DNA of 64,000 nt from Pseudocercospora fijiensis CIRAD86. Taxonomy: Eukaryota; Ascomycota; Dothideomycetes; Mycosphaerellales; Mycosphaerellaceae. Positions 7,074 to 63,477 of this stretch are shown piece after piece. The translations under genes and the position numbers were made by a program. The stretch lies in assembly GCF_000340215.1 (NCBI RefSeq), contig NW_006921533.1, positions 125,616-189,615 of the forward strand. Direction: 5' to 3'. Within the stretch, counting starts at the first letter, position 1; every line of letters begins with the position of its first letter. The notes under the pieces are model-generated. The model saw only the letters and a list, made by a program, of their open reading frames with translations, had not been told where the DNA came from and ran no database searches.

Positions 7074-7079
7074 CTATAG

Positions 7080-12100: not shown

Positions 12101-12107
12101 AATATAC

Positions 12108-12124: not shown

Positions 12125-12129
12125 TATAC

Positions 12130-23154: not shown

Positions 23155-23163
23155 AATAGTACT

Positions 23164-30588: not shown

Positions 30589-30619
30589 TAGTATTCGATC
30601 CACCCTTTAAGGGCAGCAG

Positions 30620-32215: not shown

Positions 32216-32219
32216 GCCG

Positions 32220-37509: not shown

Positions 37510-37514
37510 TACCT

Positions 37515-41658: not shown

Positions 41659-41855
41659 TATTAGGGCTAAAGAGGCTATACGTAATTAGTATATAACTAG
41701 GCCGAGTAAAGCTAGGGTCTTAATGCCTTAGGCAGGGCTTAGCGCTTAGCGTTAGGCTAACTCTCCTGCCTTCCTCCCTCTCCTCCTAGATTCTTATCGA
41801 ATACTATACTAATTCACTACTACCCTATCTACCTGCTAATATAACCCTTCTTATA
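41659..41855 (+). repeat. 3' LTR of gypsy copy 2
   Basis: A 197-bp LTR beginning TATTAGGGCTAAAGAGG and ending CTTCTTATA. The copy 1 sequence resumes right after it with the CTAAG duplication. Confidence 0.9.
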
Positions 41856-41860
41856 CTAAG

Positions 41861-44800
41861 CCGTAGTGCGTAAGGTCCTCGACCGCCTACGAGCCTATAG
41901 ACTATATTACAAACCTTCTAAATGCACCTTTGCTACTAAAGAGGTGTTATTCCTTAGCTTCCTTATTTCAACCGAGGGTATTAAGGCTAATCCTAACCGG
42001 ATTAAGACTATTACTAAATAGCTAACCCCTACTAGTATTAAGGAGCTTTAATTATTCCTTAGCTTCGCTAATTTCTATCGTCGCTTTATTAAGGGCTATT
42101 TACGGTATGTAATGCCCCTAACTAAGCTCACTAAAACTAAGGCTAACCTAACTAGAGAGTTTAAATAGACTAATAGAGCACAAGCCGCTTTTAACGGTTT
42201 AAAGAAGCGATTTACTGAAGTCCCTTTATTGTACTATTTCGTACTAAGCAAGTAGATCCGAATTAAGACTAACGCTTTACAGTTCGCTATATCGGCTATT
42301 ATATTATAGCAATCAGATGATAACTATTACTAGCACCCGATTACCTTCTTTTTACGAAAGATAATTAATACTAAGCGTCGCTACGAGACCTACGAGTAAG
42401 AGCTCTTAGCTATTATTAAAGCCTTTAAACACTAGCGCTACTATCTCGATAGTGCCTAGCATACTATTTAGGTCTATACGGACTATAACAACCTCCGTAG
42501 AATTACGAAGGTTACTAGGGTTATAGGTCGACAGGCTAGATAGGCCGTCTACCTCGCTAGGTTTGATTTTAATATGTTATATCGGCTAGGCGTAAGTAAC
42601 CCTACTAATAGCCTATCGAGGCGACCTAATTACGACAGCGGGACTTAGCAATCTATTAATTTATTGTTTCCAACCCTATAGTATAAGATTGCTATAGCCC
42701 GTATTGTTAATAAGCAAGCGTAGGATAAGCGGCTTACCGGACTCCGCGACGGCTTAAAGCATATTAATGCTCTTACTATATTAACAGTACGTATTAAGGC
42801 AAGAGCTAAGGACACAGATAGGAGAAGTTATAATAACTCCCTAGTCGATATCGCAATATATAGTAATAGCGATAGCACTAATGCAGTTAATCCGGCTGCT
42901 AGTGCTATTAGATACATACAATGCGTACCTCGTTTAATAGCGAGGGTGCTATTAAATAACCTTATAAATAGGGATAGTTAATCGTTTATAGATGAGCTGT
43001 TACGGGCTTAGTAGAGGGACGCCTTTGCTGCTAAACGTATAGACAAGCTTGTAAGTAGGCGAAAGACTCGATCTAGTAAGAGTAACAATTAGTCGATCGA
43101 TAACAAAGGTTATTTAAAGTTTAAGGGCAGATACTATATCCCCGCTAAACATTCGATCCGATAAGAACTTCTCAAGCGACACTATAATAGTAAGCTTGCC
43201 GGTTACTATAGCATAGAGAGGTCGCACGAGCTACTATCGCGTATATACTACTAGCTAAATAGTAAGCGGGACATAAAGGACTACGTAAATACATATACCG
43301 TATATTAACGAGTTAAAGCGCCGAAGCACTTACTATTCGGCGAGTTGTCTTTACTCCCTGTTCTAAAGAAGCTATTTGCAGAGCTTATAATAGACTTTAT
43401 TATAGGACTTCCGCCTACTAAGCGTAGGGGGGAAGTATATAATACTTTCCTTGTTATAGTAGATCGATTTACTAAGGGCGCTCGATATATCCCGGCGCGC
43501 AAGGATTGGACTGCTATTAATATAGTAGAGGCGCTATAGACTAACATCTTCTATACCTATTAGGGAACCCCTAAGGGGATAGTCTCCGATAGGGGCTCGA
43601 CATTCACATCGCACTATTAGAGCGAAATATGCCTATAGCTAAGACTAAAGTATCGGCTATTAACAGCCTTCTATCTATAGACTAACGGTTAAACAGAGAG
43701 ATAGAATGCTACCCTATAGCAGTACCTGCGTAGTTACATTAACGAGAACCCTAAGGATTAGGTCAATCTCCTATAACTAGCCGAATTCGTATACAACAAC
43801 AGTGTCTACTTATCTACTAAGGTGTTACCTTATTTCGCTATAATAGGAAGAAACCCTACGCTACTATAAGACCCCCTATCGCTCGGGGCCGAGCGTAAGG
43901 AAAGGGAAGCGGGTTAACCTAAGACACTAGCGGCTATTAAGAGGGTTTAGAAGATGCGAGAAATCTATACTAAGATAGCCGAGAAGTTAATAAAGGCTTA
44001 AGAGTACTAAAAGACCTACTATAACAAACACTACCTTCTAATAACCTTTAAGCAAGGCGATATAGTTATGCTTAGTATAAAGAACCTCCGTATCCGTAAA
44101 TACCTATTACCCGATAGTAAAATAAGGCCTAAGCTCGTACTAAGATACATTAGCCCATTCCGCATCCGAGAACCGAAGGGTATATAGGCCTACTAGTTAT
44201 AGCTTCTACCCTATTACACTATCTATAACACCTTCTATATATCCCTCCTTAAGCTATACTATTAACGCGAAGGCGACGAAGCACCTACTAAGTTAGAAGA
44301 AGTCTTAGCTAATAGTAAAGAACTGTAGTCTATAGAACGTATCCTATAGTACCGGACTAGGAAAGGCAAGAAGGAGTACCTATTAAGATAGTAAGGCTAT
44401 TTACCTGAATAGGACTCGTAGGAAGCTGAAGCCTCTTTTAAAGATATAACTAAGTTGTTGGACGAGTATTAGACTAGTATAAAGAACAAGAAGAAGGCTA
44501 AAAGCTCGTAATGTTACTAAGGCTTAGGATTAATAGCACCCTTAGGATGCTATTAGCTAACTAATTAGAGGCCGACAAACTAGGACAATAAGACTATACT
44601 ACTATAGTAGACGCGCACTAAGCATTAATAAACGCGCTATAACTGTTAACTAATCGCCTGCTCTTTTAAGGATTCTACCTCTTCCCTAATGCGCCCTATA
44701 GGTCCCCCTCTTGTTCTTTATTCTATCGAGGCCTCGAGACCTAAGCGTTCGATAAGGGCGACGTGCGCGCGCGTACGAATAACGGTAATAAAGGTAATAG

Positions 44801-45726
44801 TGTCGCGCTACGAGCTAGCAGTACGCCGGCGGCTAACGCGGCTATATTAGTAACGGTATTGCGGAGTGTATTATTAGTCGAAGAAGGAAATCGAAAAGCA
44901 AGGTAAAGTTAGCGCTAAGACGACTAGCGTCGCTATTGTTAACATTACTTGCTATTGTTACTACGCCTATAGACATAACCTTACCTACACTACGAGCCTA
45001 AGGCACCTTTGATCAAAACTTTAATTAAAACTTTAAGCTACCTAAAAGATTAGGCGACTAATAGACTAACTAAGGGCAAAACTATAGAGCTAAGCTAGCC
45101 GGGGTCGATCTTGCGGACAATAGGTTACTCCTCGATCTTTCCGACCCTTTAAGCGAGGCGAACCTCTACTACTATACTTACAATAGCCTTTACCTATAGA
45201 AACTAGAAGAACTAAGTTTTTTAAAAAGATATAATTAGTTAACACTTAAAGGCTGCCAAACCTAACCAATTTAGGCTAGTAAAACTACGACAGTAAATAA
45301 TAGCCCTCGTAATAATAAGAACAACCCTCGGAAGCGGACAAACCCTTAAAGCGGACATTTCTAGGTCTGTTAGAGTAGACGTAAAGAACTCGTACGACAT
45401 TACTTAGAACGGAGGCAGTGCTACAATACCTCGTACGTCTACCTATTATAGCAGGGAAGACGCGCTCGTATTGTAATTAGTCGAAGGCTCTCAATTCTTA
45501 TAGATATATATTACTTTATAGTTTATTATATATAGGGATAGCGCAGTTAGAGTTAGACATTGTACTATATTAGAGGTGAGGTTTGACATAGTTACATAAT
45601 TAGGTAGTTAAGTGTTTAATTTAGCGCGGCTAAGTAGCTTATTAGACTTGCTAAGTTAGCAGTAACAGAGGTCGAGGTTGGAACCTAGGAAGGCTACGAG
45701 GGCGCGGCCTTTAGAAGGGAAGCGTG
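41861..45726 (+). pseudogene. Gypsy copy 1 RNase H-integrase-chromodomain relic (right segment) and 3' UTR
   Basis: Continues copy 1 after CTAAG. It holds the RT C-terminal part and RNase H (about 41,870-42,650), the integrase (about 43,130-43,900, with an open block MSLLPVLKKLFAELIIDF at 43,345) and the chromodomain (about 44,335-44,450). The 3' untranslated region runs from about 44,515. Confidence 0.85.
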
Positions 45727-45915
45727 TATTAGAGGCTACACGTGATTGGCATATAACTAGCTCGAGTGAAGCTAGGGTCTTAGTGCCTTAGGTAGGGCTT
45801 AGCGCTTAGCGTTAGGCTAACTCTCCTACCTTCCTCCCTCTCCTCCTAGATCCTTATCGAATACTACTTATACCTACTACTACCCTATCTACCTGCTAAC
45901 ATAACCCTTCTCACA
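45727..45915 (+). repeat. 3' LTR of gypsy copy 1
   Basis: 189 bp, sharing with its partner the 8-base deletion near the start. The end CTTCTCACA keeps the canonical CA and is followed by the GTTTT duplication. Confidence 0.9.
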
Positions 45916-45920
45916 GTTTT

Positions 45921-47600
45921 ATAACTAAAGTAAAGAACCTCGTTAGTCTAGTAGTCGATAATACAAGTCTTATATCGCTACTAGTTATTATAAAGATAGG
46001 TCTTATATATATAATAATAATATACGTTATCTAACTTTCTTACGTTCTTCTTAAACTCCTATTTAATTTAACTATAGATTATATACGTAAAGAGCTATAG
46101 GAACTTGCTAGTTTAAAGGCTATCTATTTAGTAACTATCGCTATTAGCCTAGCTAGACTCGCCTCGTTCCTTACGGACTTGAGTTAATATATCTTATTAC
46201 AGATACTAGCTATATATAACATTACTAGACTCCGGAAATACCTCCTTAATAGTACCTATAAGAGCTTCTTTGCGGTTAGTACTAGTAACCGATAGTAGCG
46301 TTATCGCCCTATCTAAGCCCTTTCCGAATAGCGCCTAAGAGCTTAATAAAGTCTAGTTTATCTAGGTTTAGACGGATATAGCTAGCGCCTAGTTTAATAG
46401 TATTGTTTATAGAACTAGTACTAATAATATCTATTAACTTAAGGCTATAGATACTAGTAGAGTATATTGTATCTTAAATAAGCGTATATAGCGTATTCCT
46501 AAAGGCTACTATTAGGCGAGGAGAGAGGTTAACTATAGACTAAATAGCTCTATTTTCTAGGTTTTTAATAATATCGTAAAAGATAGTATAGTCGTCTAGT
46601 AACTAAACTATACGTCTAGCCTAGTTTAGCTATTAGCGTGCGTTAATAATTTAAGTCTAGGCAGTATTATTAATATCCTTCGGCTTTAGTAGAATACTAC
46701 GGCCTTAAAGATATACTATAATCTTTAAGATTAGTATTTAGGCTTACTAAAGCCGCTCTAGTTACTTAAAAAACTATACTATTCTCGACTACGTTCTATA
46801 AATATTAAGAGTAATAACGTCGTCCTTCTTATAGTTATAGAAATAGTAATCTTCTCCCGTAGAATAGCGAATAACCTACTAATTTTTAGGCTAGCTAGGG
46901 CCGATAGTAAGTTCGTAGAAGTAGAACTTAGAACCTATCTCCTTTAAGATTAAATTCCGCCTTATTACTCCTTCCTTCTAGTTACGCTTATCTCGTAAGC
47001 CGAAGTGACTATATATCTAGCGGTAGTAATATTTAAGACTATCCTTATTCTTCTACGGCTTATAATACTTAAACTCTAATCTAGTCGCCTTTCTAAAAAT
47101 ATAGACGTACGACTTAAGGGCTCGATATAACGGAAATCGCAACTTAAGCGGTATTAGCTTACGAGAGCGCTCCTTTAGTAAGAGTAGGTACTTCTAAGGG
47201 CTTAGTAATACTAATTAATAATCTAGTAGATTAATACGCTCGTACGGTAGTAATAGTAAGCGCGAGCGGCCTCGAAGATATATCTTTAAGATAAATTAGA
47301 CCTCTTTCTACGACTTAACTTCTAGTACTATTAATCGCGCGCCTTCTATATCTTCTACTACTATTTCTACCTTTTCTACGCCTTCTATATCTTCTACCGC
47401 TATCTCTACTTCTTCCTACGACTTAGCCTTTACTACCGTCGATTACCCGCCTTCTTTATCTTCTATCGTTATTTCTACCTCTTCCTACGACTTAGTAAAT
47501 ACTACTGCCGCCGCCGCCGCCGCTACGCCGTTACTACTATTACTACCGCCGGTAATAACTTTATTAAGAAACTCGTCGTATAATAGAGATTTAGCTATTT
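45921..47600 (-). pseudogene. MULE-A transposase relic, N-terminal and catalytic part
   Basis: On the minus strand, the block at about 46,330-46,530 reads FRNTLYTLI-DTIYSTSIYSLKLIDIIST (one stop at the dash). It lines up with the MULE transposase core of MULE-B at 60,190-60,290, and the catalytic Asp of the D-x-TY motif is visible. The N-terminal part (about 47,330-47,530) is a low-complexity Glu/Val/Ala tract, including a (GCC)n run at 47,510. The C-terminal part continues at 23,640-24,586, beyond the gypsy nest. Confidence 0.75.
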
Positions 47601-47715
47601 TTAATAGTTACTAAATAGTCTACTATAAAAGGAAGCAGAAATACGAATTTTAGGTCTATAATAGAATTCGAGGCGTAACTTCCTAGATAATGTATAGCGC
47701 GCCTATTTATTAGAC

Positions 47716-48067
47716 TATATAGTAGTCTAGTCTAGTCTAGTTTAGTTTATAAGAAAACTAGTATACGGACCTAGTTTAACGACTACGTACCGGCTATAGA
47801 CAAAAATCTAATCTAAAATTCGTCTAAGTAGCCTAGAATATAAATATAATCGTATAGTATATATAGTATAAGGCCCCCGTCCTATTCTAAAGTCGATCCG
47901 AGGTTTTCGTATATTATTATATATTATTATAGCCTAATTGGATTTTCTCGGAAACTAGTTTAGAACTAGTATAGTAGCAAACTAAACTAGAACTAGGCGG
48001 CTAGTTTACTACTAAGAAACTAAATCGTATCCGTTTTATAGTTCGTAATCGTAAACTAAAGTACTAT
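47716..48067. mobile_element. MITE-like repeat, copy 1 (inside MULE-A)
   Basis: About 350 bp, homologous along its full length to 49,531-49,878 in the same orientation. Comparison with MULE-B shows the MULE-A terminus is continuous on both sides, so this is a secondary insertion between the inverted repeat and the transposase frame. It has no coding capacity. The ends carry AGTAGT...GTACTA-type inverted words eroded by RIP. Confidence 0.6.
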
Positions 48068-48099
48068 AAGGTATACTACTAATAATACTAGCTAGGAAC

Positions 48100-48220
48100 G
48101 GAAATAGCCTATATTAGATAGGAAGAGTACGTAATTCTATATAAAGGCAATTCTATAATAGTACTAGTATCGGATTATAATAGGGCTCGGTTAGGTAGCT
48201 AGGGCTCGGTTTAGTAGCTA
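48100..48220 (-). repeat. Right terminal inverted repeat of MULE-A
   Basis: Reverse complement of the left end of MULE-B at 58,917-59,040, with the shared word GAATTACGTACTCTT. Ends at ...TTTAGTAGCTA before the AATAGTACT duplication. Confidence 0.8.
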
Positions 48221-48229
48221 AATAGTACT

Positions 48230-48747
48230 TCTAGGGTTAGGCGTGCCTTTAAAAACTAGCCTCCCTATCCTCTATACTAGTATTTAGTTATTCTCTAGAC
48301 TAATAGATACCTTTTATATAACTCTCGCCGGCTCTACTCTAACTAGTAATAAGCCTCCCTATCTAATATACTAATCTAATAGATACCTTATTCTTACGCA
48401 ACTTAAGAAACTTATAGCTAGCGTTACCTAGGTACCTATAGATTTATTGCTCCGCTCGATTTAGACCCTTATATATTATTACGGTAAAGCCGGACTAGGA
48501 TCGGTAGAAGGAAGTCTCTAAGAAGGGCTAGTAGAGGTAGACAAACGCTACTAAACTTAAGAGTTAGGGACGCAAATATAAAGCTATAAAGGCCTAGGAG
48601 CTATCGCTAAGGGACCCGAGTTCCGCTCGTATACGATATAGTAGACCTTTTAAATACGCCTAACCTCGCAGATCCGTAGAGATAGATATAAATTAACTAT
48701 TTCCGTACGCTTTCTAGATACTCTTATACTATCCTAGCGACTACCTT
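48230..48747. other. RIP-affected spacer downstream of precursor relic P2
   Basis: No frame or motif that I can assign on either strand. It lies between MULE-A and the 3' end of P2. Confidence 0.4.
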
Positions 48748-49252
48748 TTAATTATTAACTACTATAAACTATAGTACTAGGATATAATAAGATTACTATT
48801 AATATAATTTACTTACTAGAGAGAGAATAGGGCGGAGGATATCCTAGAGGCTTATCTAGCGTATATTTATAAGGTAGTCCTACTAGGCCTTACTTAGGCT
48901 TAGCTTTTACCTCTCTTTTCGTTTTATCGACGTCTATAAATTAGGGTACTAGCGTATAGTAAGATTAGTTTTACTAGAATCTACTTACTACGCTTTTTAT
49001 TCTTCTAGGGATAGCCTTAAACTTTATAACTTAGTAGATCGCCGACTAGTAGGCTAACTAGGCCTCGTAACCGAGTATCTAAAGCGCTTTTATTAAGATC
49101 TATAGGTTAGGGTATTAGTATCTAGTAAGATTGTTATTAAAATAGGTTTACTTACTAAGCGCTATAGCCTTAGCGTCTAGTATAGTAGTAACGCGTAGGA
49201 TAGGCGAGGCTATAGTAAGTAAAATAGTAATTATTAATAGGAGTTTCGGTAT
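48748..49252 (-). pseudogene. RiPP precursor-like relic P2, destroyed by RIP
   Basis: Four minus-strand exons: 49,156-49,252; 48,989-49,099; 48,817-48,933; 48,748-48,761. They total 339 nt, an exact multiple of three. The start codon reads ATA (from ATG). Exon 1 then gives a hydrophobic signal-peptide-like run (PKLLLIITILLTIASPILRV). Exon 2 ends in a GYP-stop-KNKKR region. Exon 3 opens with a Lys/Arg-rich kexin-like stretch ending KRE and closes with GYPPPYSLS. The last exon is tiny, just VNN and a stop. All three introns are 55-56 nt, phase 1, with GTAAGT donors and TAG acceptors (from CAG). Organisation and C-terminal pattern mirror the intact gene at 62,888-63,477. In-frame TAG codons show loss of function. 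Confidence 0.72.
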
Positions 49253-49530
49253 CGTTACTTTTAAATAGTAAAGATTAAATCTTCGATAGTAAGTAGTATT
49301 TTATATAGTAATAAAAGAGAACTCGAGTTCGGCGGAGAACGTATATTTTATTATTTAATCTATTATTACATTTATTTAGGCTTTAAACTCTTTCTCGGTA
49401 GTTAATTAGCCGTCTTATAACGTAGAGTATATAATTAGAGTAAGGAATATTATTATACCGACCTCTATATATAGAGCTAATAGATAGATCTCTAGAATAT
49501 CGTAATTAGACTATAGAGGATAGACCCTAT
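49253..49530. other. RIP-affected spacer upstream of P2
   Basis: The presumed promoter region of P2, too mutated to show elements. No gene seen. Confidence 0.4.
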
Positions 49531-49878
49531 AGTAGTTCGGGTAAGTTTAGTTTAGTTTGCTAAGCTAAATTTCTAGTTTAGTTTAGTTTACTAAGGAACC
49601 GGTATACGGACTGGTTTGCCGGCTACGTACCGGCTACGGACAAAAACCTAGCCTAAAATACGTCTCAATAGCCCGAAATATAGATACAATCGTATAGCGT
49701 ATATAATATAGGGCCCCCGGACCCGATCCGAGGTCGTCGCATATCGTCGTAGTTTAGTCGGATTCTCTCGGAAACTAGCTTAGACTAGCGGGGTAAACAA
49801 CTAAACCGGAACTAAACCGGAGGGCTACCGCTAAGAAACTAAACTGTATACGTTTTATAGTTCGTAAACCGAACTACT
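49531..49878. mobile_element. MITE-like repeat, copy 2
   Basis: 348 bp bounded by inverted ends (AGTAGTTCGG at 49,531 and CCGAACTACT at 49,869-49,878). It is homologous to 47,716-48,067. Shared internal landmarks include GGCTACGTACCGGCTA and GGGCCCCC/AGGCCCCC. No coding capacity, so it is non-autonomous. Confidence 0.65.
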
Positions 49879-50714
49879 ACGGGGTCTAATAGAGGAAAAG
49901 CGATTAGGCTTCCCCGAGAGGATACTTTCTATATTATTAGAGGAAAAGGGGGTTACGTAGACTATATTAGGTTTAATAGAGGAGGAAGTCGTTAGAGAAA
50001 CTAATAGCTAGCTTATAGTAAGACGAATTAAGACGATCTAGGCCTCTATATATATAGATAATACTTCGAGAGAAAGCTTAGATAGGAACCTTAGTTAATC
50101 TTTACTTATTATAGCTAATAGTATAATACTTAAAGCGTTAGTAGTAACCTAATAGAACTATTAGGATCTAAGAGCTTTTAATTTCTAAGTCTAGTATAGG
50201 GTAATACCTCGGACTTTAAAGTTAATATAATAATATAACTATAATACGCGACGAAATTCTTTTTATTCGGATTATAAGGCGTAGATAGGCCCCTATAACC
50301 TCCTAAGGGAGGCTTAAAAAGACAGGGACGTGTCCTTCGAGATATTATAAAGAGTACTCGGGCCTCTTAAAGGCGCTAATTAGAGTATTATAGAATCGTT
50401 AGCGAAGTATTACGGCTATCGCCTAGGGAGCTAGATTTTCTTTATATACGATATCTCTTTATAGCTTAGTATTTTTATTCTAATAGTAATACGTATAGTT
50501 AGTCTATTAATAGGTTTCGCTCGTCGTTATAGTAGTTATTTAACTTTATCTTAAGCTCGAAAGGGCCTCCTAAAGAACGAAGAGATAGTAGCCCTTCTTT
50601 CGATTACGTTAAACTTTATAGAATAACTATAGTAAAAGATCTTATATAGCCGTTTCCGTAGCTAGATATAAAAAAGAGTAAATAGTAAGTACCTATACTA
50701 AAGTAATTACAAAG
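49879..50714. other. RIP-affected stretch with unassigned coding-like frames
   Basis: Minus-strand frames look partly coherent (for example a run from about 50,540 to 50,450 and another near 50,330-50,200) but are broken by many stops, and I recognise no family. A ruined gene of the same cluster is possible. I did not find an HxxHC-type UstYa signature, though RIP would change the His codons. Confidence 0.3.
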
Positions 50715-51794
50715 TTAAAAGGAATATAGAAATAGTATCTCGCCTAGGGCGGAGAATCTTTTTAGATAGTTTTATAATCTAGTAACTACTTCTTATTTTC
50801 TAATCTAAGGATAGCCTAAAGCGTTATTACGAGGTAGGTCGCCTTTACTATCTAGTAGGGCCTACTTAGCGTCTACCGTACTTTTCTTAACCCTAGGATA
50901 GCTTAGTAATATACCTACGCCTAATTGCTTCTAAGCGGCTACCTATCGTTTCTTAACGTCTATAAATTGCAAAATAAGTATATAGTAAGATTAGTAGTAT
51001 TACTATAATATACTTACTAAAGCTATTAGTATAGCTTAGAGTATTAGATAGAGAGGCCGGTACCTCCCCTAGTAGATATTCTCTAGAAGGGTCTAGAGGC
51101 GGCTTTCTAGCGTCTACCTCTCTTTTCTTAACCCTAGAATAGCTTAAAGCCTAATTGCTAATTAGTACGCGTACGCCTAGTTACTTCTAGGCGGCTATCC
51201 GTTATTTCTAAAGTCTTAACGACTATAAATTATAACTATAGATTTAGTATATAGTAAGATTAGTAGTATTACTACGGTATACTTATAAGGGCTATTAGTA
51301 TAGCCCGGAGGACTATATAGATAGGCCGGTACGTCTTTTAGTAGATATACTTTAGAAGGGTCTAGGTTTAGAAGCGACCTTCTAGTATCTATCTCTCTTT
51401 TCCTAATATAATATATCTATAAACTAGGAGATTAGTATATAGTAATATTAGTACTACTTTAATTTGCCTACTTAGTATAATATTATAAAGAGAGTCTAGC
51501 TATTCCTTAGCGTTTATCTCTCTTTTCTAGGGATAGTCTATAGCCCTATACGGATCGTTATAGTAAGATAGTAGGGATATAAAGGCGTCTATCTTTTTTT
51601 CGATCTCTATAGGTTAGTATATTAGTATATAGTAAAATTAGTATTAAAACGGCCTGCCTACCTAGCGCTATACTATTAAGAGAGCCTAACTATTCCCTTA
51701 GGCTAGTAACTACCCTAGCGTCTACTATAGTAATAGCGTAAATAAGAGGCAAGGCTATAGCTAGTAAGCTAGTAATTACTAATAGGAGATTCAT
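50715..51794 (-). pseudogene. RiPP precursor-like relic P1, destroyed by RIP
   Basis: Five minus-strand exons: 51,662-51,794; 51,472-51,606; 51,283-51,416; 51,018-51,222; 50,715-50,959. The ATG at 51,792-51,794 is preserved and begins a clear signal peptide (MNLLLVITSLLAIALPLIYA). Each following exon carries one or two kexin-like basic sites (for example KREINA, KKREVDA, VKKR) followed by variable peptides, some ending in YP or GYP and a stop codon that RIP could have made from Trp or Gln. Introns are 55-60 nt with GTAGGC, GTATAC or GTAAGT donors and TACTAAT branch points. Exon 2 is phase-symmetric (1-1, 135 nt). Exons 3 and 4 carry frame-changing indels, and several TAG codons break the frame. 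Unlike the intact gene, its repeats are diverse, so it may have encoded several different peptides. Confidence 0.7.
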
Positions 51795-51903
51795 TATTAC
51801 TATAGAAGAGTATAGAAACTAAATAGTAGAGATTATATCCCTAATAGAACGTAGCCTTTATATAGTAATATAAGAGAACTAGAGTTCGATAAACTTACTA
51901 CTA

Positions 51904-51947
<44 letters not shown>

Positions 51948-52159
51948 GTTATAGTACGTATAGTAGTATCTTTAATAAAACGCTAGTATATAGTAGCTAA
52001 TATACGAGATCGGGAGTATATTCTATAAGAAGGGAACGTATAATTAATTTAAGAGAATTATTAGAGTAGCGTAGAGGTAGCCTATATAGATATACCTTAG
52101 TAGATATCTTATAGGAATATTAGAATATACGCTTCTATAAATATAGCCTCTATATACTA
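51795..52159. other. RIP-affected upstream region of P1 with (TA)n microsatellite
   Basis: Presumed promoter side of P1. A (TA)n run lies at about 51,904-51,944. RIP mutation fades out between 52,140 and 52,200. Confidence 0.5.
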
Positions 52160-52650
52160 TATAATATACTAGTGTCTACCGGTGCATACACGTCGGGTAT
52201 ACCCGGATACTAGGATATCCGAGGATTATTAGGTAGCCTAGCCGGCAACACGCAGGACACTAGCGCATCCTATAACTCCTCCTTGTATGCATACACTAGC
52301 TCACGTTTACGCCCCTGCGTACATGGTGTATTACAGAGCGTGTACACATGCCCATGTGTATGCAGCTCCATCACTACTTTCCCGGCAGTTGATTATCCGG
52401 GATCTCCTCGCTGTCTTCCACCGCGGAACCTTCTTGCAGAATTGTGACATGCGATAGAACTAGGGATCGAAGGCCATGCGTCGGCGACTCGTGCGCACAT
52501 CGGCCAGATGTGACCAAGCAGTTCTCTGGGATGTCGCGATAAGACTGTGGAGTGGCGCAATCCTTTAAGCTTCCTCGAGCGAATGCTTCCTGCGTTAGAG
52601 AACTCTACGTGATACTACTTCAACCGGTTTTCGTTGTAGTAGTTGGATGA
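52160..52650. promoter_or_regulatory. Upstream region of UstYa gene 2
   Basis: Unmutated sequence leading to the ATG at 52,651. I see no decisive TATA or binding-site motif. The divergent neighbour on the minus strand is relic P1 (start 51,794), so this roughly 850-bp interval may once have been a shared promoter for a precursor and a modifying enzyme. Confidence 0.35.
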
Positions 52651-53899
52651 ATGGCCGCGACTGACGACAACATGGAAGACTCTCGAGTGTCCAGTTCCGC
52701 TATGTCGAGCAACGACGGATCCGAGTGGGAGAAGGAGACGTTATTGCGTGGAGGAAGCAAGCCAAGGCCCGTTTTACGCCTCACGAGGCTCAATTTGTGT
52801 CTCATCGTGGCATCGGCGACGTTGATCTCGAATTGCTGCCTTTTAGCCTTTGCTGCTATGATTTGGCCCAAAAGCCCTCCTCATCCATCAAGCTCAAGTC
52901 AGCAAGCTTGCGAAACGGACGATCTCCCTCTCGATAGTAAGTTGAGAACACTCTTGCCTGCCTTCGCGTACATGCTCACCTCAAACAATGCCAACTGACC
53001 TGGTCCAAATCTTGGTGTAGAGGATGCGATCATGAACCGCTTCGATCGTTCATATCACACTGTCACGTTTCCTGCATGGAACTATACAAACCCCCCACAC
53101 ACCGTTCCGCCCAATGGTGAGAGCTACGAAGAGTCGCGAGTAGATCAGCTCTGGACAGAGCTAGGCGTTCATTGTCGGTCGAACACCAAGTGTACTCATG
53201 TTTTAGCGGCTTTCTAACAGTCTGGCAGCCAATTTCATCACCATCCCCGTATCACAAGGACCTGCGCATGGCCTTGATATACATCGGCATGTCATTCTCC
53301 CAGAGAAGATAAATGGAGAAGACCATTTCATAGCGACGATAGAGGTCGTCCATCACCTTCACTGTCTGGTTAGCCTGCACTCGATGACGAGTCTCTTGGA
53401 TCGTACGACTGACAGTTCGTTAGAACATGCTGCGCCAAAATCTGTGGTACCAAAGGGACTGGTATAAGGAGCACCATGAAAGCGATGCAGCAGAATCGCT
53501 GAAGATAATACATATCAGTGAGTTGAACATGTGACGACGCGTGAGATTTGAAGTATCATGGTGTACTGACGATAAGGCCTAGACCATTGCCTGGACAATC
53601 TGCGTCATCGTTTGATGTGTACTGCCGACCGTGGCCTTGTGCCTTGGACGTGGGCTTCAGCTCCGAGCGGCATAGTTGTGGATTTTGAGCGAGCACATCG
53701 CTGCCGCAATGCACAACCCATATTGGACTGGGCCATCCAGAATCAGTATCCTGACAAGCCCAAGGCAATCCACTTCAAGATGCCCAAGGGAGCCTATCGA
53801 ATACCATGGGAACATTTCGTCTCACCTACCGACCCTCGTGCTAAGCAGTTTACTTCAATTTGCAGTCCAACTGCAGAGGAGTGCCCTCGAGAGGATTGA
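52651..53899 (+). CDS. UstYa-family (DUF3328) oxidase-like protein 2, five exons
   Basis: Exons 52,651-52,936; 53,021-53,164; 53,229-53,368; 53,424-53,517; 53,577-53,899 join to 987 nt (328 residues plus stop). Intron 1 (GTAAGT) and intron 4 (GTGAGT) have canonical donors. Intron 3 starts GTTAGC. Intron 2 keeps frame only with a GC donor at 53,165, so that junction is less certain. The protein has a hydrophilic N-terminus, one membrane segment (about 47-71) and the first signature HHLHC at 185-189 followed by LNMLRQNLWYQRDWYK. The second signature region reads SLDHC (222-226) followed by LDNLRHRLMC, so the first His of HxxHC appears to be Ser at an exon junction. A C-terminal HRCRN block follows. 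Such proteins are membrane-anchored presumed oxidases of RiPP and related pathways. Only the coding prediction and family are seen in sequence. Confidence 0.8.
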
Positions 53900-54985: not shown

Positions 54986-57900
54986 ACGCACCGGGCCCGT
55001 ATAAAGTCCCATACCAGCGTCCGAGCGCCTAGTCCTTCCAAGAATAGGGTCAGCCTGCCGCAGCGGACTCGGTGAGATATCGAAGTCCGCTCCGTGGTAT
55101 ACGTAACTATAGAAAACGTAATGTCGATGTCTCTGCGCGTCGCGGTTGCTAGGTCGACAGGTTAGGGTAGTAGCAGTAGTAGTAGTGCGATTTCCGCTAG
55201 CATACTAAATATCGATAGTAAGAGGTCGTACGGTCGCAATTTGATAGATTTCGTACTGTTTTTATAGTGTTTAACGACCCCGCATTCTCTGCTAGTAGAT
55301 ACTAGTTATATTACTAAAAATAAAGCTAAAGTTTGTTAGTAAAACAGCGGTATAGTAAAATTCGAGGTGTAGTTAGCGATTACGGCCATTTTAATAGCGT
55401 TAATATATATTAGAGGGCGGCGGTGTATAAGGCATGCTACTATAGACCTATATCGCGCTCGGAGGCGCGTATTGCTACCTATTTAGTGCCGGTAGTGTCG
55501 GTAGAGGCATATAGAAGCTATTAGTTACCTACGCGACCTACGTAACGGCGGAATTTAAAGGAAAACGCGACAAGAACGCGTCGATACCGCCTAGAACTAC
55601 TAACGGCGCTTCTTTACCAAAATTTAGCTAAGCTAGCGCCGCTAGTGTTCGCTCGGATATATATTCTTGCCCTACCTATTTCTCTACCTATTTCTTCGAT
55701 CGCTTCGGCTTCTTACTCGTAGTATCTACGCTCTTGCCCTTCCGCTTCTTTAGCGGCGGCGCTATATTAGTCGCTTTTAGAAGGCAATAGCTCGATATAA
55801 TATCGCTTAGCAATAGCGCTTATAATAGCTTCGGCGGCGGCGCTTTTATTAGTATAAGAATAGCTTCCGGATAAGTGCTCTTAAAGTAAGTAAGGACGAG
55901 GTTAGTAAAGCCCTTCCTAATATTGTCGCCGCTCTCGTAGAAGACTGTTAGCATCTTCGAGATAATAACCTCGCGTTGCTTGTCGCTCTCGTCTATGCCT
56001 TGTTAGTCGTATAAGCGCTCGAGTTGAAAGATTAACTCGTACGCGTTAGTAAGTACCTCGCGGACGTTTAATCGATAGGTAGGCGCGTATACGACCTCGG
56101 CGGCGGCGGCGTCTTCTTATACTACTATCGACTTAGAAGCGTCTTCTTCGTAGACCTCGAGAGCGCGTCTAGCAAATATATTAACCTATTGTTGCTAGTA
56201 ATAATCTTTAATAATAACGCGTTTAAGTATAAGGTAATAATGCTAGAGGTCGGCGCAAAGGACGCGATATTAGCGGAAGAATTTACAGTCGCAGGTAAGC
56301 GCGCCTGCCTCGGTTAATAACGGCTTCGGGTCTTAGTATACGGACTTGTTAAGAACGCGATTAATCTTAGTACTAATCTTGCGCTAAATAGGCTATAGAA
56401 GGCGTAGAAGCTAGGTCCGGAGCTCGTCGTCGTCGCCGCGCGCGAGTAAGTGTACGTTTAATACCTAACGCTTACTAGCAATGTCCGACCGAAGGTCTCT
56501 AAGCTCGCCCTCCTATATTGTTTGTATAGCCACGCCTGTTAGTGTAAAGTTAGCCGCTATTAGCGACTTATTGCCGTCTATTTTAAGACACGCGTAAAAG
56601 CTCTCGTTTATATTAGTATCCTTGTATTGTCTAACGATAGTAGGCACGTTATAGACGCGATAGTGGTTTGCCTATAGGCGAATATCGCTGCCGAAGTCTT
56701 AAACTAAATATGTATAGTTTAACTCGTAATCGCTGTTTCGGGGGAGGTTATCGATAGCGGCCTAGAGCGACTCTTTCGCGCCTTCGAGCGAGCGGCGGTA
56801 TACTACGGCGGCGCGTAGGTGTTTACGTGTCTCTTAGTAGATTTTCGCGCTAAAGCGTCTGTCGATAGTGCGCTAAACGTAGACGTAGCATAGCAGGTGT
56901 ATTGTCGTCGTAAATGCTATTCGAACTGCGCGTCGCTCGGCTGCCGAGTCGTCTATAAGGAGGAATTTAGGTACCTAAATACCGCCTGTCTACCTGCTTA
57001 TAGTGCGCAAAAACTCCGCAACAATATCGCCGTCGTTAGTAGGTAAGAGTATGTATACCGCCGTACGAGAAATAGTATATTTATCCTTTACTATAATAGT
57101 ATAAAGAAACTAACCTAGGTAATTAGTCTTGTACGTCGCGTCTATAAACGCGATCGTACGATAGGCTTTAAGCAGTTCTATACTAGTTTTGCTAGCATAC
57201 ACGACGCCGTAGGTAGTCTCTTTATCGATTTAGCGTATAGCTTCTATATTCTCGCAAAATAGCCCTTCTATAATAATATATTAGTGATTGTTATAATAGA
57301 AAACCGCAAATGTAAACAAAAGAATCCTAAAGTTTAGGGTTCGGTCTGCCAAGGCGCGCTAGAAGCCGGACCGAGGTATTGCCGCAGCTTCTAAATTATC
57401 TTATTAGCTCGAAGCTGAGGCTCTGCGGCGCTTCCGCTTTAGGCGAAGAACTTTAGAATCTCGAGATTCCACCTTTCGTGTCTAGTATTCGCAGGCAATC
57501 GAGTCTAATATCTTTATCTATCGAGCTAATAACTTAGATAGACTTCCGCGTCGATCTATTAGTTAATCGGAGTCCGGATACGCGGGCGCGACGGTCCGCA
57601 TAGCTGTTTTTCCAACCTTACGCCCTAGCTTAACAATAATAATAAGATTAACTAACCTTATTGACACTACTCGAATATATCTTCTTTCTATGTTTGCTAT
57701 ACTAGCGACGCGCCGCCGAGCCTTCTATCCTTATATGCCTTCCGGAAGGCGCGACTAGAATTAAGTACGTCGTACTTTATTATAAAATTGCCGCCGGCGG
57801 CCTTAAATAGCGTATTCGCTGCTAGGTCGTGCTAAGCCTTTAATGTCTTCTATACCGCACTCGGCTTGTATCTATAGCATACCTCGTACCCTATAGTAGT

Positions 57901-58832
57901 TAATAACGCGCTATACCGGCGGAAGAGGTCGAAGTTATCTAACTAGTAGTAGTCCGAGTAATCCTCGCGGCTTATACGCTAAACTCGATACGCGACAATC
58001 TCCGGCTTACTAGACTTATTATCCTTATTATATATAGTATATACCTTCATCGTTATAGGGCAGCCTTGCGCGCGTTCAATCTTCTTATTAAAGCGCTACG
58101 CACTATACCCTTTAGTCTTATCCGACTTCTAGTATAGTTGCTTACGAAAGCGGCAAATATAACGCGTCGTTTCTAGCCTACTCTTCTCGATATAGTCCTT
58201 GTTCTTTGTCTATATATTATTAATATATAGCAACAACGCGTACTATTACTTTGCCGGCACCTTAAACGAGTCGTCGAAGCCGTATAGAATAGCTCGTTCG
58301 CGCTATTCGCGGAGGTTATCGACATATAGTAAGGACGCGTAGTACGAGTCTAGCTTAACTAGAACTCGAGACTTTCGAGGGCGGCGATAGTCTAGGGACA
58401 CTAACGCGTTTTTATTACTAGAATCGACTAAATCGTCCCCTTCTTCCTCCTCTACCGAAAAGTTAGCGATTCCGACCGCGCTCCGCTCTCGTCGCAATCT
58501 TATACCTAGCGCGAAGTTACCCTATGCCTGCGATACTAGAATATCCCTATCCCTACCTCCTCTAAGGTAGTCCGCAATTGATATAGTATTAGAAGACATT
58601 AAAGGTATAATTTAAATAATAGAAGAGATAGAAACGATAGCGCAGAGCGATAGTAAGGTACGATAGCAAAGTAGAAAACAATAACCTAAACAAACCGGTA
58701 CGCGTCGACGCGTAGGAGCGGAAGCGTATACAATCTACGCCGACCGCCGCTCTATAAGGTCGGAAGCCCCGGTTAGCTATAGGTTAGGCGCTCGGACGCT
58801 AGTATAGGACTTTATACGCCTCCTACGCACCT
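54986..58832 (-). mobile_element. MULE-C DNA transposon
   Basis: Inverted ends are visible at 54,986-55,035 (GTATAAAGTCCCATACCAGCGTCCGAGCGCC) and 58,779-58,832 (reverse complement, with RIP changes). This is a different terminal family from MULE-A and MULE-B. A MULE-type transposase relic fills the interior on the minus strand. I could not define the target duplication, so the ends are approximate by a few bases. Confidence 0.75.
55640..58600 (-). pseudogene. MULE-C transposase relic
   Basis: Read on the minus strand. An acidic N-terminal part is open at 58,303-58,497. The catalytic MULE domain is at about 56,950-57,250 with FIDATYKTNYLG (near 57,120-57,160), where the Asp is the first of the catalytic set. 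A SWIM-type zinc finger at about 56,240-56,310 reads LTCDCKFFR...LCADL. A basic C-terminal tail with SKKPKRSKK lies near 55,690-55,720. In-frame TAG codons are scattered, but RIP is milder than in the gypsy elements. Confidence 0.75.
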
Positions 58833-58907
58833 ATGCTAAAGAAGTCGATCTTATAGGGTTGCACGGATATACAATCTCGTATTGTTAGGCGGGCGCTCTT
58901 CTCGAGT
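58833..58907. other. Spacer between MULE-C and MULE-B
   Basis: 75 bp of RIP-affected DNA ending in the CTCGACGTC target duplication of MULE-B. Nothing else seen. Confidence 0.5.
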
Positions 58908-59199
58908 CTCGACGTCCCTAGCTACTAAACCGAGCCCTAGCTAGCCGCCCGAGCCCTAGTATATCCCGATACTAGCACTATTATAGAATCGCCTTATATA
59001 GAATTACGTACTCTTTCTACCTAATATAGGCTATTTCTATTCTTAGTTAGTGTTGTTAACGGGCGCGTAGCGCGTATTAACGGGCGCGTAGCGTATTACC
59101 TAGAAAGGAATTCTACCGTAGACCTAAAATTCGTATATCTTCCTCCTTTTATAGTAGATTGCCTAGTAACTATCGAAAATAGCTAAATCTCTATTATAC

Positions 59200-61700
59200 G
59201 ACGAGTTTCTCGATAATCTTATCGCCGGCGGCGATAACGTAGTAGTAGAAGACGTAGTAGTAGAAGACGTAGTAGTAGAAGACGTAGTAGACGCGGTAGT
59301 AGAAAGCGCTTAGTCGATAGAGATAGTAGTAGAAAGCGCGGAAGACGCGCAATCGACGATAGTAGATATTAAGTCGTAGAAGGAGGTTTAATTAGTTTCG
59401 GAGACTTATATTTAAGGTCGCTATCGCTATTGCTTACTATCGCTACCTCGCGAGCGTATATCGCTTCTAGACTATCGATCGGTGTCGCTACGCCCTTAGA
59501 AGCACCTATTCTTACTAAAGGAGCGTTCTCGTAGTCTAATACCGCGAGAGTCGTAGTTTCTATTCTATCGAGCTTTCGAGTCCTATATCTACGCCTTCGG
59601 AAAAGCGACTAGGTATAAGTTTAAGTAGTATAAGCCGTAGAAGAATAAGAATAGTATTAAATACCGCTACCGCTTCGTATATAGTTGCTTCGGCGTACTA
59701 GATAAGCGTATATAGAAATAGGACGAGGTAGCGATATAGCGAAAGTCGACCTCGAAGAAGATAAGGTATAGGTTCTATTTCTACGCTATTACTATCGATC
59801 TAGCGCAACCTAAAGGTTAGTAAGTTATTCGCTATTCTATAGAAGAAGACTACTGTTTCTATAACTACGAGAAAAACGATATTGTCGCCCTTGCTATATA
59901 TAGAAGGTAATCGAGATCGGTCTAGTTCCTTAAGTAACTAGAGCGGCTTTAGTAAGCGCGAATACTAATCTCGAAGATTATAGTATACTTTCGAGGGCGT
60001 AGTATACTACTAAAGCCGAAGGACATTAATAATATTGCCTAGTCTCGTAATATTAAGGCATGTCGATAACTAAACTAGGCTAAACGTATAATTAAGTTGC
60101 TAGATAAATACGCTATATTCTACGACATTATTAACAACCCGGAAAATAGAGCTATTCGGTATATAGTTGCCCTCTATCCTCGCTTAATAGAAGCCTTTAA
60201 GAAGACGCTATATACGCTTATATTAGATACGACATACTCTACTAACATCTACAACCTCGAGCTAATAGATATTATTAGTACTAGTCCTTTAAACGATACG
60301 ATTAAATTAGGCGTTAGTCTTATCCGTCTAAAGCTAGACAAACTAGACTTCGTTACGCTCTTAAAGGCCGTCCGGAAGGGCCTTAAACAAGCCGATTGCG
60401 CTATGCTATCGGTTATTAGTACTAATCGTAAAGAGGCTCTTATAGGTGCTATTAAGGAGGTGTTTCTAGAGTCTACTAATATTGTATATAACTAGCATCT
60501 ATAACAAGACATACTAACTCGAGTTTGGAAGGAACGAGGCGAGTTTAGTTAAGTTAAGAGCGACGGTAGCTAGACAGACTTACCTTAAACTAACAAGTTT
60601 CTACGGCTCTTTACGTATACTATCTATAGTTAAACTAAATAGGAGTTCAATAAGAACGTAAAGAAGTTAGACAACGTGTATCCTATATTTAAGACCTACC
60701 TTTATAATAACTAGTAGCGTTACAAGGCTTATATTGTCGACTGCTAGACTAACGAGGTTCTTTACTTTAGTTGTAAGACAACCTCTCGAGTTGAATCTAT
60801 ATATAGACGTATTAAACAGTAGCTTAACTATAGCAGCCGCTACGACATCTTTACGCTCTTTAAGAGCCTATTATAATAGTAGCAAGAAGGTTACGACCGC
60901 CGTTATGTTGCTCTTACTAAGAACCTAAAGAGGTACAATAAGGCACTAGCTAGACTATTCTAGGCTAGTGTTTCTCGTATAATAAGCGACTATTACTTAC
61001 TCGAGGTAAAGGCACTATATTTACGAGCTAAGGACCTTCTGCTTACTATAACCGACGACGACGGCAACGAGGTAAAGTACTTAGCGTTCTCGTATAACTG
61101 TTTATAGTGCCGCTATAACGACTACCTTCGCAAGACCTATAGTTATCTATGTATCTACGACTTAATAAAGCTTATTAAGACAGGCGGCAATCGCGCTATT
61201 CTATTGCTAAGTTACTTCTATAAGCACTAGTTTATTAACTTCCGTAGAACGGTCCGTCTATAAGAGCTAGAGGTTATCTTTAGCAACCGCAAACCTCTTA
61301 CTAGCGGAGCTATATTATATATAACAAAGCGCGCTACTATAGTACGTAAATTAGACGACCTAAATAAGATAGCAGTCGCTAAGCGATAGAAGATAGCAAT
61401 AGCTAGAACGACTAAGTTTATACTCGAGCCTAGCGTCTTACTTACTTAGCTAAGAACGACCGTTAAGCACTATAAGTACGTTAAGAGCTAATGCTATACT
61501 TAACAATGCCCTTGCTAGAAGGCTAATCGTACGTATAGCGCTACTTGCTATCTAAGCGGCTTCGAGTGCTATAATCTACGAGTCTAGTCTTTACTTCTAA
61601 TAGTACTAGAACCTCCTTCTAAGCTAGATTCACTCCGCCGAGAGATTAAAGACCTCCGAGTACGTAAGAACACTCGATTATAGGTAGAAGAATAACGTAC
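59200..61700 (+). pseudogene. MULE-B transposase relic
   Basis: Plus-strand frame. The N-terminal part contains an acidic tandem repeat (EDVVV units, 59,230-59,290). A FAR1/WRKY-like DNA-binding part probably lies at about 59,400-59,900. The MULE catalytic core at 60,097-60,495 is open over 132 codons, with LILDTTYSTNIYNLELIDIIS containing the first catalytic Asp and VISTNRKEALIGAI where the second would lie (Asn instead of Asp). The C-terminal part to about 61,700 has Cys/His clusters near 61,090-61,150 and 61,490-61,580. It is broken by TAG codons. Confidence 0.75.
59230..59290 (+). repeat. 18-bp tandem repeat in MULE-B
   Basis: Three-plus units of GTAGTAGTAGAAGAC encode an acidic Glu-Asp-Val-Val-Val tract. 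Confidence 0.7.
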
Positions 61701-62237
61701 GAGATAGTAAGCAGACTATAGCCGCTAGTAGGCGGCATTATATAAGCAATAACAACGATAGGCTACTTAGTAATAGTACTAGTAGTCGCTTATATAGCTA
61801 GTAGGAAGGCCGCTTTATTAATAGGTGCTATAGTAATAGCACTATTAGTTTACTTAGCAATAGCACTATTAGTTCACTTAGTAATAGTAGTATGCTAGTT
61901 AGCAACTAAGAGACTAGTATAAGCTAGCATATATAGCCTCGCGTGGTTACAAGGCCGTAGGTCGCAATCCGATTAGACCTGAGTAGATAGCAACTAACAA
62001 TACCTTCAATTTTGCTATACTACTGATTTGCTAACAAACTTTGGCTTTATAGCTAGCAGCAGTATTGCAGTGGCTGGCAGCAGTATTGCAGTGGTTGCCC
62101 GGCTGGCGGGGCCTGCATCGACGCGATTATCCGCTTCTATACGCGATTATGTATAGAACAGCCGATCTCGTAATCTCGGGATATGCTGGGGCTCGGGCGG
62201 CTAGCTGGGGCTCGGTTTAGTAGCCAGGCTCGACGTC

Positions 62238-62887: not shown

Positions 62888-63477
62888 TCACTTCTTAACA
62901 TCTGCAGGTCATGGTATTAGAATAGCGTATTGGAATACTAATGCCACGGTTTACTGACCTAGGCTGCTATAACCCCAAGGGTAGCCGTCAGCAGCAATTG
63001 GCGAGTCTGGCTTGGCGACTGCCTCTCGTTTCTTGACATCTAGGCTACTATAGCCCCAAGGATAGCCGTCAGCTGCGATCGGAGAGTCTGGTTTGGCGAC
63101 AGCCTCTCGTTTCTTGACATCTAGGCTACTATAGCCCCAAGGATAGCCGTCAGCTGCGATCGGAGAGTCTGGTTTGGCGACAGCCTCTCGTTTCTTGACA
63201 TCTAGGCTACTATAGCCCCAAGGATAGCCGTCAGCAGCAATCGGAGAGTCTGGCTTGGCCACAGCCTCTCTCTTCTTGACATCTGCAAATGAGGGTGTTA
63301 GTATCTGGCAAAATGTGGCTTTGCCACGGTCGGGTACTTGCCTAGGCTGCTATATCCCCAAGGATAGCCGTCAGCAGCAATGGGAGAGTCTGGCTTGGCG
63401 ACTGCCTCGGCGTCTGGCACAGGAAGAGCGTGTACGAGAGCCAGCAAGCCAGCAATTGTCGATAGGACGTTCGGCAT
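62888..63477 (-). CDS. Intact repeat-containing RiPP (dikaritin-type) precursor
   Basis: Exons 63,342-63,477; 62,959-63,282; 62,888-62,901 give a protein of about 157 residues. Residues 1 to about 17 are a signal peptide (MPNVLSTIAGLLALVHA). Five copies of a core region containing DGYPWGYSSL follow. Copies 2-5 lie in 27-residue units that open with DVKKRE, so a kexin site precedes each. Intron 1 (59 nt) has a GC donor (GCAAGT) and a perfect TACTAAC branch point. Intron 2 (57 nt, GTCAGT donor, CTAAT branch) leads to a tiny exon ending DVKK-stop. If it is unspliced the frame instead ends LGQ-stop at 62,951. Known dikaritin precursors share this layout: signal peptide, KR-bounded repeats and Tyr-rich cores cyclised by UstYa proteins. 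Alternatives are an alpha-type pheromone precursor (the KREA spacer is reminiscent, but the core lacks the usual Cys or GQP pattern) or another kexin-processed signalling peptide. Confidence 0.85.
62959..63282 (-). repeat. Four 81-bp tandem units of the precursor
   Basis: Four units of exactly 81 bp encode the DVKKR-spacer-core repeat. The middle ones are almost identical in DNA, pointing to recent unit duplication or homogenisation. Both ends of the array are at phase-1 splice points. Confidence 0.92.

What the first reader, a model, noticed from the sequence alone, without database searches (positions are those of the whole stretch)
62888..63477. Undescribed kexin-processed peptide precursor with five YPWGY cores
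The sequence shows a signal peptide, five near-identical repeats, KKR cleavage sites and a Tyr-Pro-Trp-Gly-Tyr core. Two Tyr and one Trp within five residues suit the aromatic cross-links known in dikaritins. I do not know this core among the characterised ones (YAIG in ustiloxins, FYYTGY in asperipin, YVIPID in phomopsin). Product structure is inference.
Basis: partly seen in the sequence, partly recalled or inferred. Interest (0 to 1): 0.92.

Follow-up and report, generated by a model that had tools for sequence, protein, structure and literature searches.

The report
Fungal cyclic-peptide precursor gene with five cores
A banana-leaf fungus carries an unannotated gene for a secreted-looking protein made of five identical peptide units, in a stretch of chromosome that also holds two genes of the family that ties such peptides into rings, so it probably makes an undescribed modified peptide of a known general kind.

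Summary
On the minus strand, 63477-62888, three exons encode a 157-aa protein with five identical 27-aa units, EAVAKPDSPIAADGYPWGYSSLDVKK(R). All 12 variable nucleotide columns between units are synonymous. The genome is Pseudocercospora fijiensis, with one copy. A P. musae protein record begins with its ortholog (leader, five units, DGYPWGYxSLDVKK kept) and runs straight into a UstYa (DUF3328) enzyme. That enzyme's ortholog is at 22179-22832 here; a second UstYa gene is at 52651-53899. Both have two HxxHC motifs. AT-rich, RIP-like DNA separates the three genes. Equal contig lengths suggest that both UstYa orthologs share a contig in P. eumusae and in P. fuligena. Best reading: a dikaritin-like RiPP cluster (precursor plus two UstYa oxidases, no tyrosinase nearby) spread out by repeats. 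A conserved Ste13-type EA-[VD]A-KP signature is pheromone-like and speaks somewhat against. New member of a known kind.

The parts
62888..63477 (-). precursor gene, ATG at 63477, TGA ends at 62888, three exons, 157 aa
   Evidence: single genomic copy; P. musae ortholog
63342..63477 (-). exon 1: leader (23 aa, signal-peptide-like by eye) and most of unit 1
63283..63341 (-). intron 1, 59 nt, GC-AG type with TACTAAC branch-like site
   Evidence: splice supported by the P. musae protein
62959..63282 (-). exon 2: end of unit 1, units 2-4, most of unit 5
62902..62958 (-). intron 2, 57 nt, GT-AG
62888..62901 (-). exon 3: end of unit 5 (DVKK) and stop
62891..63408 (-). five repeat units (74-nt copies in register start at 62952, 63033, 63114, 63195, 63335); units 1 and 5 are interrupted by introns 1 and 2; 12 variable columns, all synonymous
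22179..22832 (-). UstYa-A: 217-aa single-exon UstYa/DUF3328 protein, HQLHC and HAPHC, one confident N-terminal helix of membrane-span type
   Evidence: (PF11807, E 1.6e-13)
52651..53899 (+). UstYa-B: 329-aa, five-exon UstYa/DUF3328 protein, HHLHC and HINHC; identical to database protein MYCFIDRAFT_202063
23001..52200 (.). AT-rich, RIP-signature DNA between UstYa-A and UstYa-B (boundaries to about 0.5 kb)
55001..62000 (.). AT-rich, RIP-signature DNA between UstYa-B and the precursor (boundaries to about 0.5 kb)

Best explanation
This is the precursor gene of a small ust-type (dikaritin-like) RiPP cluster in Pseudocercospora fijiensis. Read from sequence: leader, five identical units, dibasic sites, two UstYa genes in the same chromosome stretch, and an ortholog next to or fused with UstYa-A in P. 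musae. Inferred: the protein enters the secretory pathway; membrane-bound UstYa-A and/or UstYa-B oxidise the aromatic-rich part of each unit (Tyr, Trp, Tyr) and close one or two rings; Kex2 cuts after KKR, a Kex1-type peptidase removes the lysines, and a Ste13-type peptidase may remove EA-VA-KP. This would leave five copies of an at most 18-residue peptide, DSPIAADGYPWGYSSLDV or a shorter piece of it, secreted in modified form. Repeats have spread the three genes over 41 kb, which would hide the cluster from neighbour-based tools.
For: KEP architecture and constraint on the unit. Two PF11807 genes with two HxxHC motifs each in the 64-kb window; with 36 loci genome-wide (a lower bound that includes these two) 0.03 are expected per 64 kb and P(2 or more) is about 5e-4 by Poisson, an overstatement since such genes tend to lie in groups. 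P. musae AC579_7671: precursor ortholog and UstYa-A ortholog in one record. UstYa-A and UstYa-B orthologs on contigs of equal length in P. eumusae (86,184; tags AC578_1469, AC578_1474) and P. fuligena (492,430). Literature: 1758 of 7878 KEP genes (22%) have DUF3328 genes among the 15 nearest, and KEPs annotated as pheromones have none with three exceptions; Tyr is in 65.6% against 38.2% of repeats with and without DUF3328 neighbours (PMC7329392). DUF3328 with two HXXHC motifs is put forward as class-defining (PMC12048977).
Against: No tyrosinase near: 18 matches in the genome, the nearest on this contig at 741,864. No methyltransferase, transporter or peptidase in the 30 ORFs scanned of 120 listed for islands A-C. 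Distances are 9 and 40 kb here. The Ste13 signature is described as pheromone-like and not predicted for ustiloxin/phomopsin precursors (PMC6339444). Trp is not enriched in KEPs with DUF3328 neighbours (20.5% against 24.5%). No expression or chemistry. The P. musae link rests on one predicted protein without DNA; no P. musae UstYa-B was returned; no precursor of P. eumusae or P. fuligena was found. UstYa-B lies between the other two genes here, so gene order may differ from P. musae.
Confidence: 0.75

Rival explanations
1. A linear secreted signalling peptide (alpha-pheromone-like or other), cut by Kex2, Kex1 and Ste13 and not cyclised; the UstYa genes nearby serve something else.
For: Conserved Ste13 signature EA-[VD]A-KP in both species, described as generally dedicated to Ascomycota alpha-pheromones (PMC6339444). 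The genome has an STE2 receptor. Expression of DUF3328 genes has been linked to the sexual cycle in other fungi (PMC5006380). 17 of 76 KEPs homologous to putative Basidiomycota pheromones do have DUF3328 genes nearby (PMC7329392).
Against: No cysteines and no PYG[LM]P[IV]G motif, the two alpha-pheromone types reported for Dothideomycetes. STE2 is on another contig. KEPs annotated as pheromones have no DUF3328 genes nearby, with three exceptions, while this one has two in the stretch and one next to or fused with it in P. musae. The fungus's own alpha-pheromone gene was not identified: one two-Cys pattern gave 4 matches against 3 for the control pattern, none in a repeat precursor, though one (C5:5631688) reads WCSVFGQLC-TKR once in its frame. 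So this rival is not closed.
Confidence: 0.15
2. A remnant: the precursor is a decaying gene in a repeat-rich contig end and no product is made.
For: The gene lies within about 1 kb of RIP-signature DNA. A weak out-of-frame trace of a further unit start follows the stop (by eye). No database protein was found for it in this genome.
Against: All compared differences between units are synonymous. Frame, splice sites and stop are intact. The ortholog keeps five units. The three genes lie in DNA without the RIP signature.
Confidence: 0.08
3. A structural or surface repeat protein (wall, adhesin) that happens to contain dibasic sites.
For: Secreted repeats are common in such proteins (general knowledge, no call).
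Against: Dibasic sites at each unit boundary, Ste13 signature, UstYa genes in the stretch, DGYPWGYxSLDVKK kept between two species.
Confidence: 0.02

Closest known systems
Asperipin-2a cluster (Aspergillus flavus), core FYYTGY
   Same: KEP precursor, aromatic-rich core with several Tyr (core sequence from the finding), described as having a single ustY gene and no tyrosinase or peptidase (PMC12048977 passages)
   Different: Different core with Trp and Pro; two UstYa genes; no reductase or transporter in the 30 ORFs scanned; SSLDV lies between the aromatic block and KKR
Ustiloxin and phomopsin clusters (YAIG/YVIG and YVIP cores)
   Same: Signal peptide, repeated units, Kex2 sites, two or more DUF3328 genes (PMC7329392)
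   Different: No YxIx core, no tyrosinase nearby, Ste13 signature present
Ascomycota alpha-pheromone precursors
   Same: KEP architecture, KR followed by XA/XP dipeptides
   Different: No two-Cys or PYGxPxG peptide; UstYa genes in the stretch; STE2 gene on another contig
Pseudocercospora musae AC579_7671 (P0004)
   Same: Orthologous precursor: leader, five units, DGYPWGYxSLDVKK
   Different: In that record it is one polypeptide with the UstYa-A ortholog; here they are two genes 40 kb apart

Membership tests
KEP (Kex2-processed repeat protein) | N-terminal signal peptide | tested here: inconclusive
   Hydrophobic leader read by eye, similar in P. musae; no signal-peptide program available
KEP (Kex2-processed repeat protein) | Repeated units separated by dibasic Kex2 sites | tested here: met
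   Five units, four KKR, final KK
Dikaritin / ust-RiPS | DUF3328 (UstYa) protein(s) encoded with the precursor, put forward as class-defining enzyme | tested here: met
   Two PF11807 genes in the window, 9.0 and 40 kb away; next to or fused with the precursor in P. musae by one protein record
Dikaritin / ust-RiPS | Two HXXHC motifs in the DUF3328 protein | tested here: met
   UstYa-A HQLHC, HAPHC; UstYa-B HHLHC, HINHC
Dikaritin / ust-RiPS | Tyrosinase gene in cluster (original definition; later relaxed) | tested here: not met
   18 matches in the genome, nearest on this contig at 741,864
Dikaritin / ust-RiPS | Methyltransferase, transporter or peptidase gene in cluster (original definition; later relaxed) | tested here: inconclusive
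   None in 30 ORFs scanned of 120 listed for islands A-C; spliced genes could be missed
Dikaritin / ust-RiPS | Side-chain macrocycle at Tyr in the product | not testable with these tools
   Needs LC-MS/MS or NMR
Ascomycota alpha-pheromone | Two-Cys or PYG[LM]P[IV]G peptide (types reported for Dothideomycetes) | tested here: not met
   The unit has no Cys and no such motif; types from PMC6339444
Ascomycota alpha-pheromone | Ste13 signature (XA/XP after KR) | tested here: met
   EA-VA-KP here; EA-VA-KP in one and EA-DA-KP in four units of P. musae
Ascomycota alpha-pheromone | Activity on Ste2 | not testable with these tools
   Only the receptor gene was located

The most novel reading that the evidence does not exclude
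The P. musae record is real: precursor and UstYa oxidase are one polypeptide, a self-contained precursor-cyclase from which Kex2 frees both the cores and the enzyme. P. fijiensis would hold the split form of the same system. The units would be cross-linked through Tyr and Trp and then trimmed in pheromone fashion by a Ste13-type peptidase.
Probability: 0.07. Interest if true: 0.8.

Novelty: new member of a known kind. Interest (0 to 1): 0.5.

Why it matters
It gives a specific, testable candidate for a ribosomal cyclic peptide in fungi of the banana Sigatoka complex. It suggests how repeat expansion can spread a RiPP cluster over tens of kilobases and so hide it from neighbour-based tools. The aromatic block, with a Trp between two Tyr, would test whether UstYa oxidases also act on Trp. 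A published study found 11 DUF3328 genes higher in infected banana leaf than in medium, without a known role (PMC5006380); this locus shows what substrate such genes can be paired with, though it is not known whether it is one of those eleven.

Tried and rejected
Precursor homologs by protein search: the 7,996 best candidates scored, none at E <= 1. The ortholog found later is 369 aa, outside that search's length limit of 1.75 times the query, which most likely explains the miss. A tblastn of the precursor against plasmids found nothing and was of little use. An AlphaFold model of UstYa-A had mean pLDDT 53 and pTM 0.28; only the N-terminal helix is trusted and no fold search was made. UstYa-A has no relative by sequence among solved structures at E <= 0.1; UstYa-B was not tried. 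The two-Cys pheromone pattern gave 4 matches against 3 for the control pattern, none in a repeat precursor; one carries WCSVFGQLC followed by TKR once and was not followed. The core-coding pattern with up to 2 mismatches gave 23 matches against 26 for its control; the 5 exact ones are all in this gene. Rfam and tRNA scans found nothing. My first splice model of UstYa-B (used) differed at intron 2 from the database protein; the annotated form, reproduced exactly, replaces it. YPWGY as a strictly defined core was considered and not adopted. The planned comparison of repeat precursors round other UstYa loci against control loci could not be made; only 8 other UstYa loci of about 3.5 kb were scanned, with no precursor in any, which is too narrow to say anything about their neighbourhoods. 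Paper searches by listing only. Paper search by locus tag: 8 of 920 papers listed, all matching the bare number 202063 only; not conclusive.

Full report
WHAT IS THERE. The window is part of contig C2 (125616-189615) of a 73.9-Mb, 30-contig genome. A UstYa gene in the window, spliced and translated here, is letter for letter the database protein MYCFIDRAFT_202063 of Pseudocercospora fijiensis CIRAD86, which names the organism; the contig lengths given, 8,841,024 there and 8,837,348 here, differ slightly. On the minus strand, 63477-62888, three exons encode 157 aa: MPNVLSTIAGLLALVHALPVPDA followed by five units EAVAKPDSPIAADGYPWGYSSLDVKK(R). The last unit ends KK-stop. Intron 1 is of the rarer GC-AG kind with a TACTAAC branch-like site; intron 2 is GT-AG; both cut the unit at the same place and phase. 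A protein search of the genome finds only this locus, and the five exact matches to a core-coding pattern are all in this gene.

IS IT MORE THAN CHANCE. A simple test for at least three similar 12-residue stretches before dibasic sites found 1 of 938 ORFs in 245,615 bp, this gene, and none in 13 further loci of 3.0 to 3.8 kb. Among the first 26 codons of the five units there are 12 variable nucleotide columns, and all 12 are synonymous; 23% of random single changes, or 33% of transitions, would be. So the whole unit, not only the aromatic part, has been held constant. The p values assume independent sites and are rough, since repeats of one gene share history.

RELATIVES. The precursor search over 5.8 billion proteins gave no hit at E <= 1. 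A search with UstYa-A returned 10 proteins of 337 candidates, one of them P0004, P. musae AC579_7671, 369 aa. Its first part is an ortholog of the precursor: a similar leader and five units, the first EAVAKPDSPISVDGYPWGYESLDVKKR, the other four with EADA. The rest is the UstYa-A ortholog, joined after the last KKR. The first search most likely missed it through its length limit. Between the two species the unit differs at four positions: V/D in four of five units, AA to SV before the aromatic block, S to E after it. KPDSPI, DGYPWGY and SLDVKK are kept. No precursor of P. eumusae or P. fuligena was seen.

NEIGHBOURS. PF11807 (UstYa, formerly DUF3328) gives 46 matches in the genome, 36 loci if starts within 1 kb are merged, a lower bound. 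Two are in the window: UstYa-A, 22179-22832, minus strand, 217 aa in one exon, 40 kb from the precursor; UstYa-B, 52651-53899, plus strand, five exons, 329 aa, 9.0 kb from it. Both carry two HxxHC motifs; the two histidines and the cysteine of each motif are invariant in the 12 sequences aligned, one P. fuligena record having three extra residues inside the second motif. At the genome-wide density 0.03 such loci are expected per 64 kb and P(2 or more) is 5e-4; counting by genes (36 among 13,107, the latter from passages of PMC4981457) P(2 or more among 15) is 8e-4. UstYa genes tend to lie in groups, so these numbers overstate the case. In P. eumusae the orthologs of A and B bear tags AC578_1469 and AC578_1474 with contig length 86,184 for both; in P. 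fuligena both have contig length 492,430. That equal length means the same contig is inference. The UstYa-B search returned 3 proteins of 624 candidates, none from P. musae.

SETTING. From 2 to 144 kb of the contig the DNA has a strong RIP signature (high TA/AT, low CA+TG). Up to 70.5 kb of window coordinates the islands without it are about 19-23 kb (UstYa-A), 52.2-55 kb (UstYa-B) and 62-70.5 kb (precursor, a DUF3237 gene, VPS16). Of 30 ORFs scanned against Pfam, chosen from 120 listed for these islands, 6 matched a family over its cut-off: three pieces of UstYa genes, DUF3237, Vps16, AAA_lid_2; 24 did not. The RIP-signature DNA was not scanned for genes beyond the genome-wide family searches. 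The separation by 9 and 40 kb, against contact in the P. musae record, suggests that repeats were inserted; since UstYa-B lies between precursor and UstYa-A here, a rearrangement may also have happened.

HOW IT WOULD WORK. Read from sequence: leader, units, dibasic sites, enzymes. Inferred: transit through ER and Golgi; oxidation of Tyr and perhaps Trp by membrane-bound UstYa proteins; Kex2 and Kex1 cutting; Ste13-type removal of EA-VA-KP; release of a peptide of at most 18 residues. DUF3328 proteins are described as required for ring closure of ustiloxins, asperipin-2a and phomopsins, by ether bonds at Tyr (PMC7329392; passages and section 7). The same survey finds Tyr in 65.6% against 38.2% of repeats with and without DUF3328 neighbours, but Trp in 20.5% against 24.5%, so it supports a role for Tyr and not for Trp. 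Where the core begins and ends is not known; in the known cases, as I recall them, the core lies close to the dibasic site, whereas here SSLDV lies between.

AGAINST. Ste13 signatures are described as generally dedicated to alpha-pheromones and not predicted for ustiloxin or phomopsin precursors, although the same paper reports them in Basidiomycota KEPs (PMC6339444; passages and sections 8 and 16). Against a pheromone: no Cys pair, no PYG[LM]P[IV]G, UstYa genes in the stretch, STE2 on another contig. PMC7329392 reports that KEPs annotated as pheromones have no DUF3328 genes nearby, with three exceptions, but also that 17 of 76 KEPs homologous to putative Basidiomycota pheromones do. The fungus's own alpha-pheromone gene was not identified. 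No tyrosinase is near; asperipin-2a is described as lacking one too (PMC12048977; passages and section 23). No expression data for these three genes were seen. PMC5006380 reports 11 DUF3328 genes higher in infected leaf, none lower, and one such cluster on scaffold 2 (passages and part 1 of section 12); whether this locus is meant is open, since supplementary tables could not be opened.

NOVELTY. No paper in the library holds YPWGY in its text. PMC7329392 mentions Pseudocercospora once, within a type with a YxIx motif that this precursor lacks. Papers on these fungi searched for RiPP, Kex2 or DUF3328 terms did not mention this precursor in the passages shown (PMC4981457, PMC4981473, PMC9002641). 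Supplementary KEP lists were not readable, so a bare listing cannot be excluded. Verdict: new member of the dikaritin-like (ust-RiPS) kind, with a Trp-containing block and a pheromone-like trimming signature. The fused record in P. musae is most likely a gene-model artefact of two adjacent genes; if real it would be much more surprising.

Noticed in passing
G000:C5:1041711-1051978: Four UstYa matches and two tyrosinase matches (C5:1044762-1045492) within about 10 kb: possibly another ustiloxin/phomopsin-type cluster.
   Followed up: no
G000:C12:1439060-1443352 and C9:248594-259165: Further groups of three and four UstYa matches within about 4 and 11 kb.
   Followed up: no
G000:C2:147884-552421: Five UstYa loci lie in the first 0.55 Mb of this contig, including the two of the window.
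   Followed up: partly
window coordinates 64744-65616 (L009:4744-5616), minus strand, just past the window's end: DUF3237 protein with a secretion-like start (by eye) between the precursor and VPS16; whether it belongs to the cluster is unknown.
   Followed up: no
window 19000-22100 and 54000-55000: DNA without RIP signature beside the UstYa genes but with no Pfam match over a cut-off in the ORFs scanned; may hold unrecognised or spliced genes.
   Followed up: partly
window 62860-62888, minus strand: Just past the stop, a short out-of-frame trace resembling the start of a further unit (read by eye).
   Followed up: no
P. musae AC579_7671 (P0004): Database record in which precursor and UstYa enzyme form one polypeptide; artefact or real fusion cannot be decided without the DNA.
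   Followed up: partly
G000:C5:5631688-5631714 (L032): Frame with WCSVFGQLC followed by TKR once, alpha-pheromone-like but not repeated; not followed.
   Followed up: no
window 1-19000 and G000:C2:2000-125615: About 142 kb of continuous RIP-signature DNA at the contig end.
   Followed up: no
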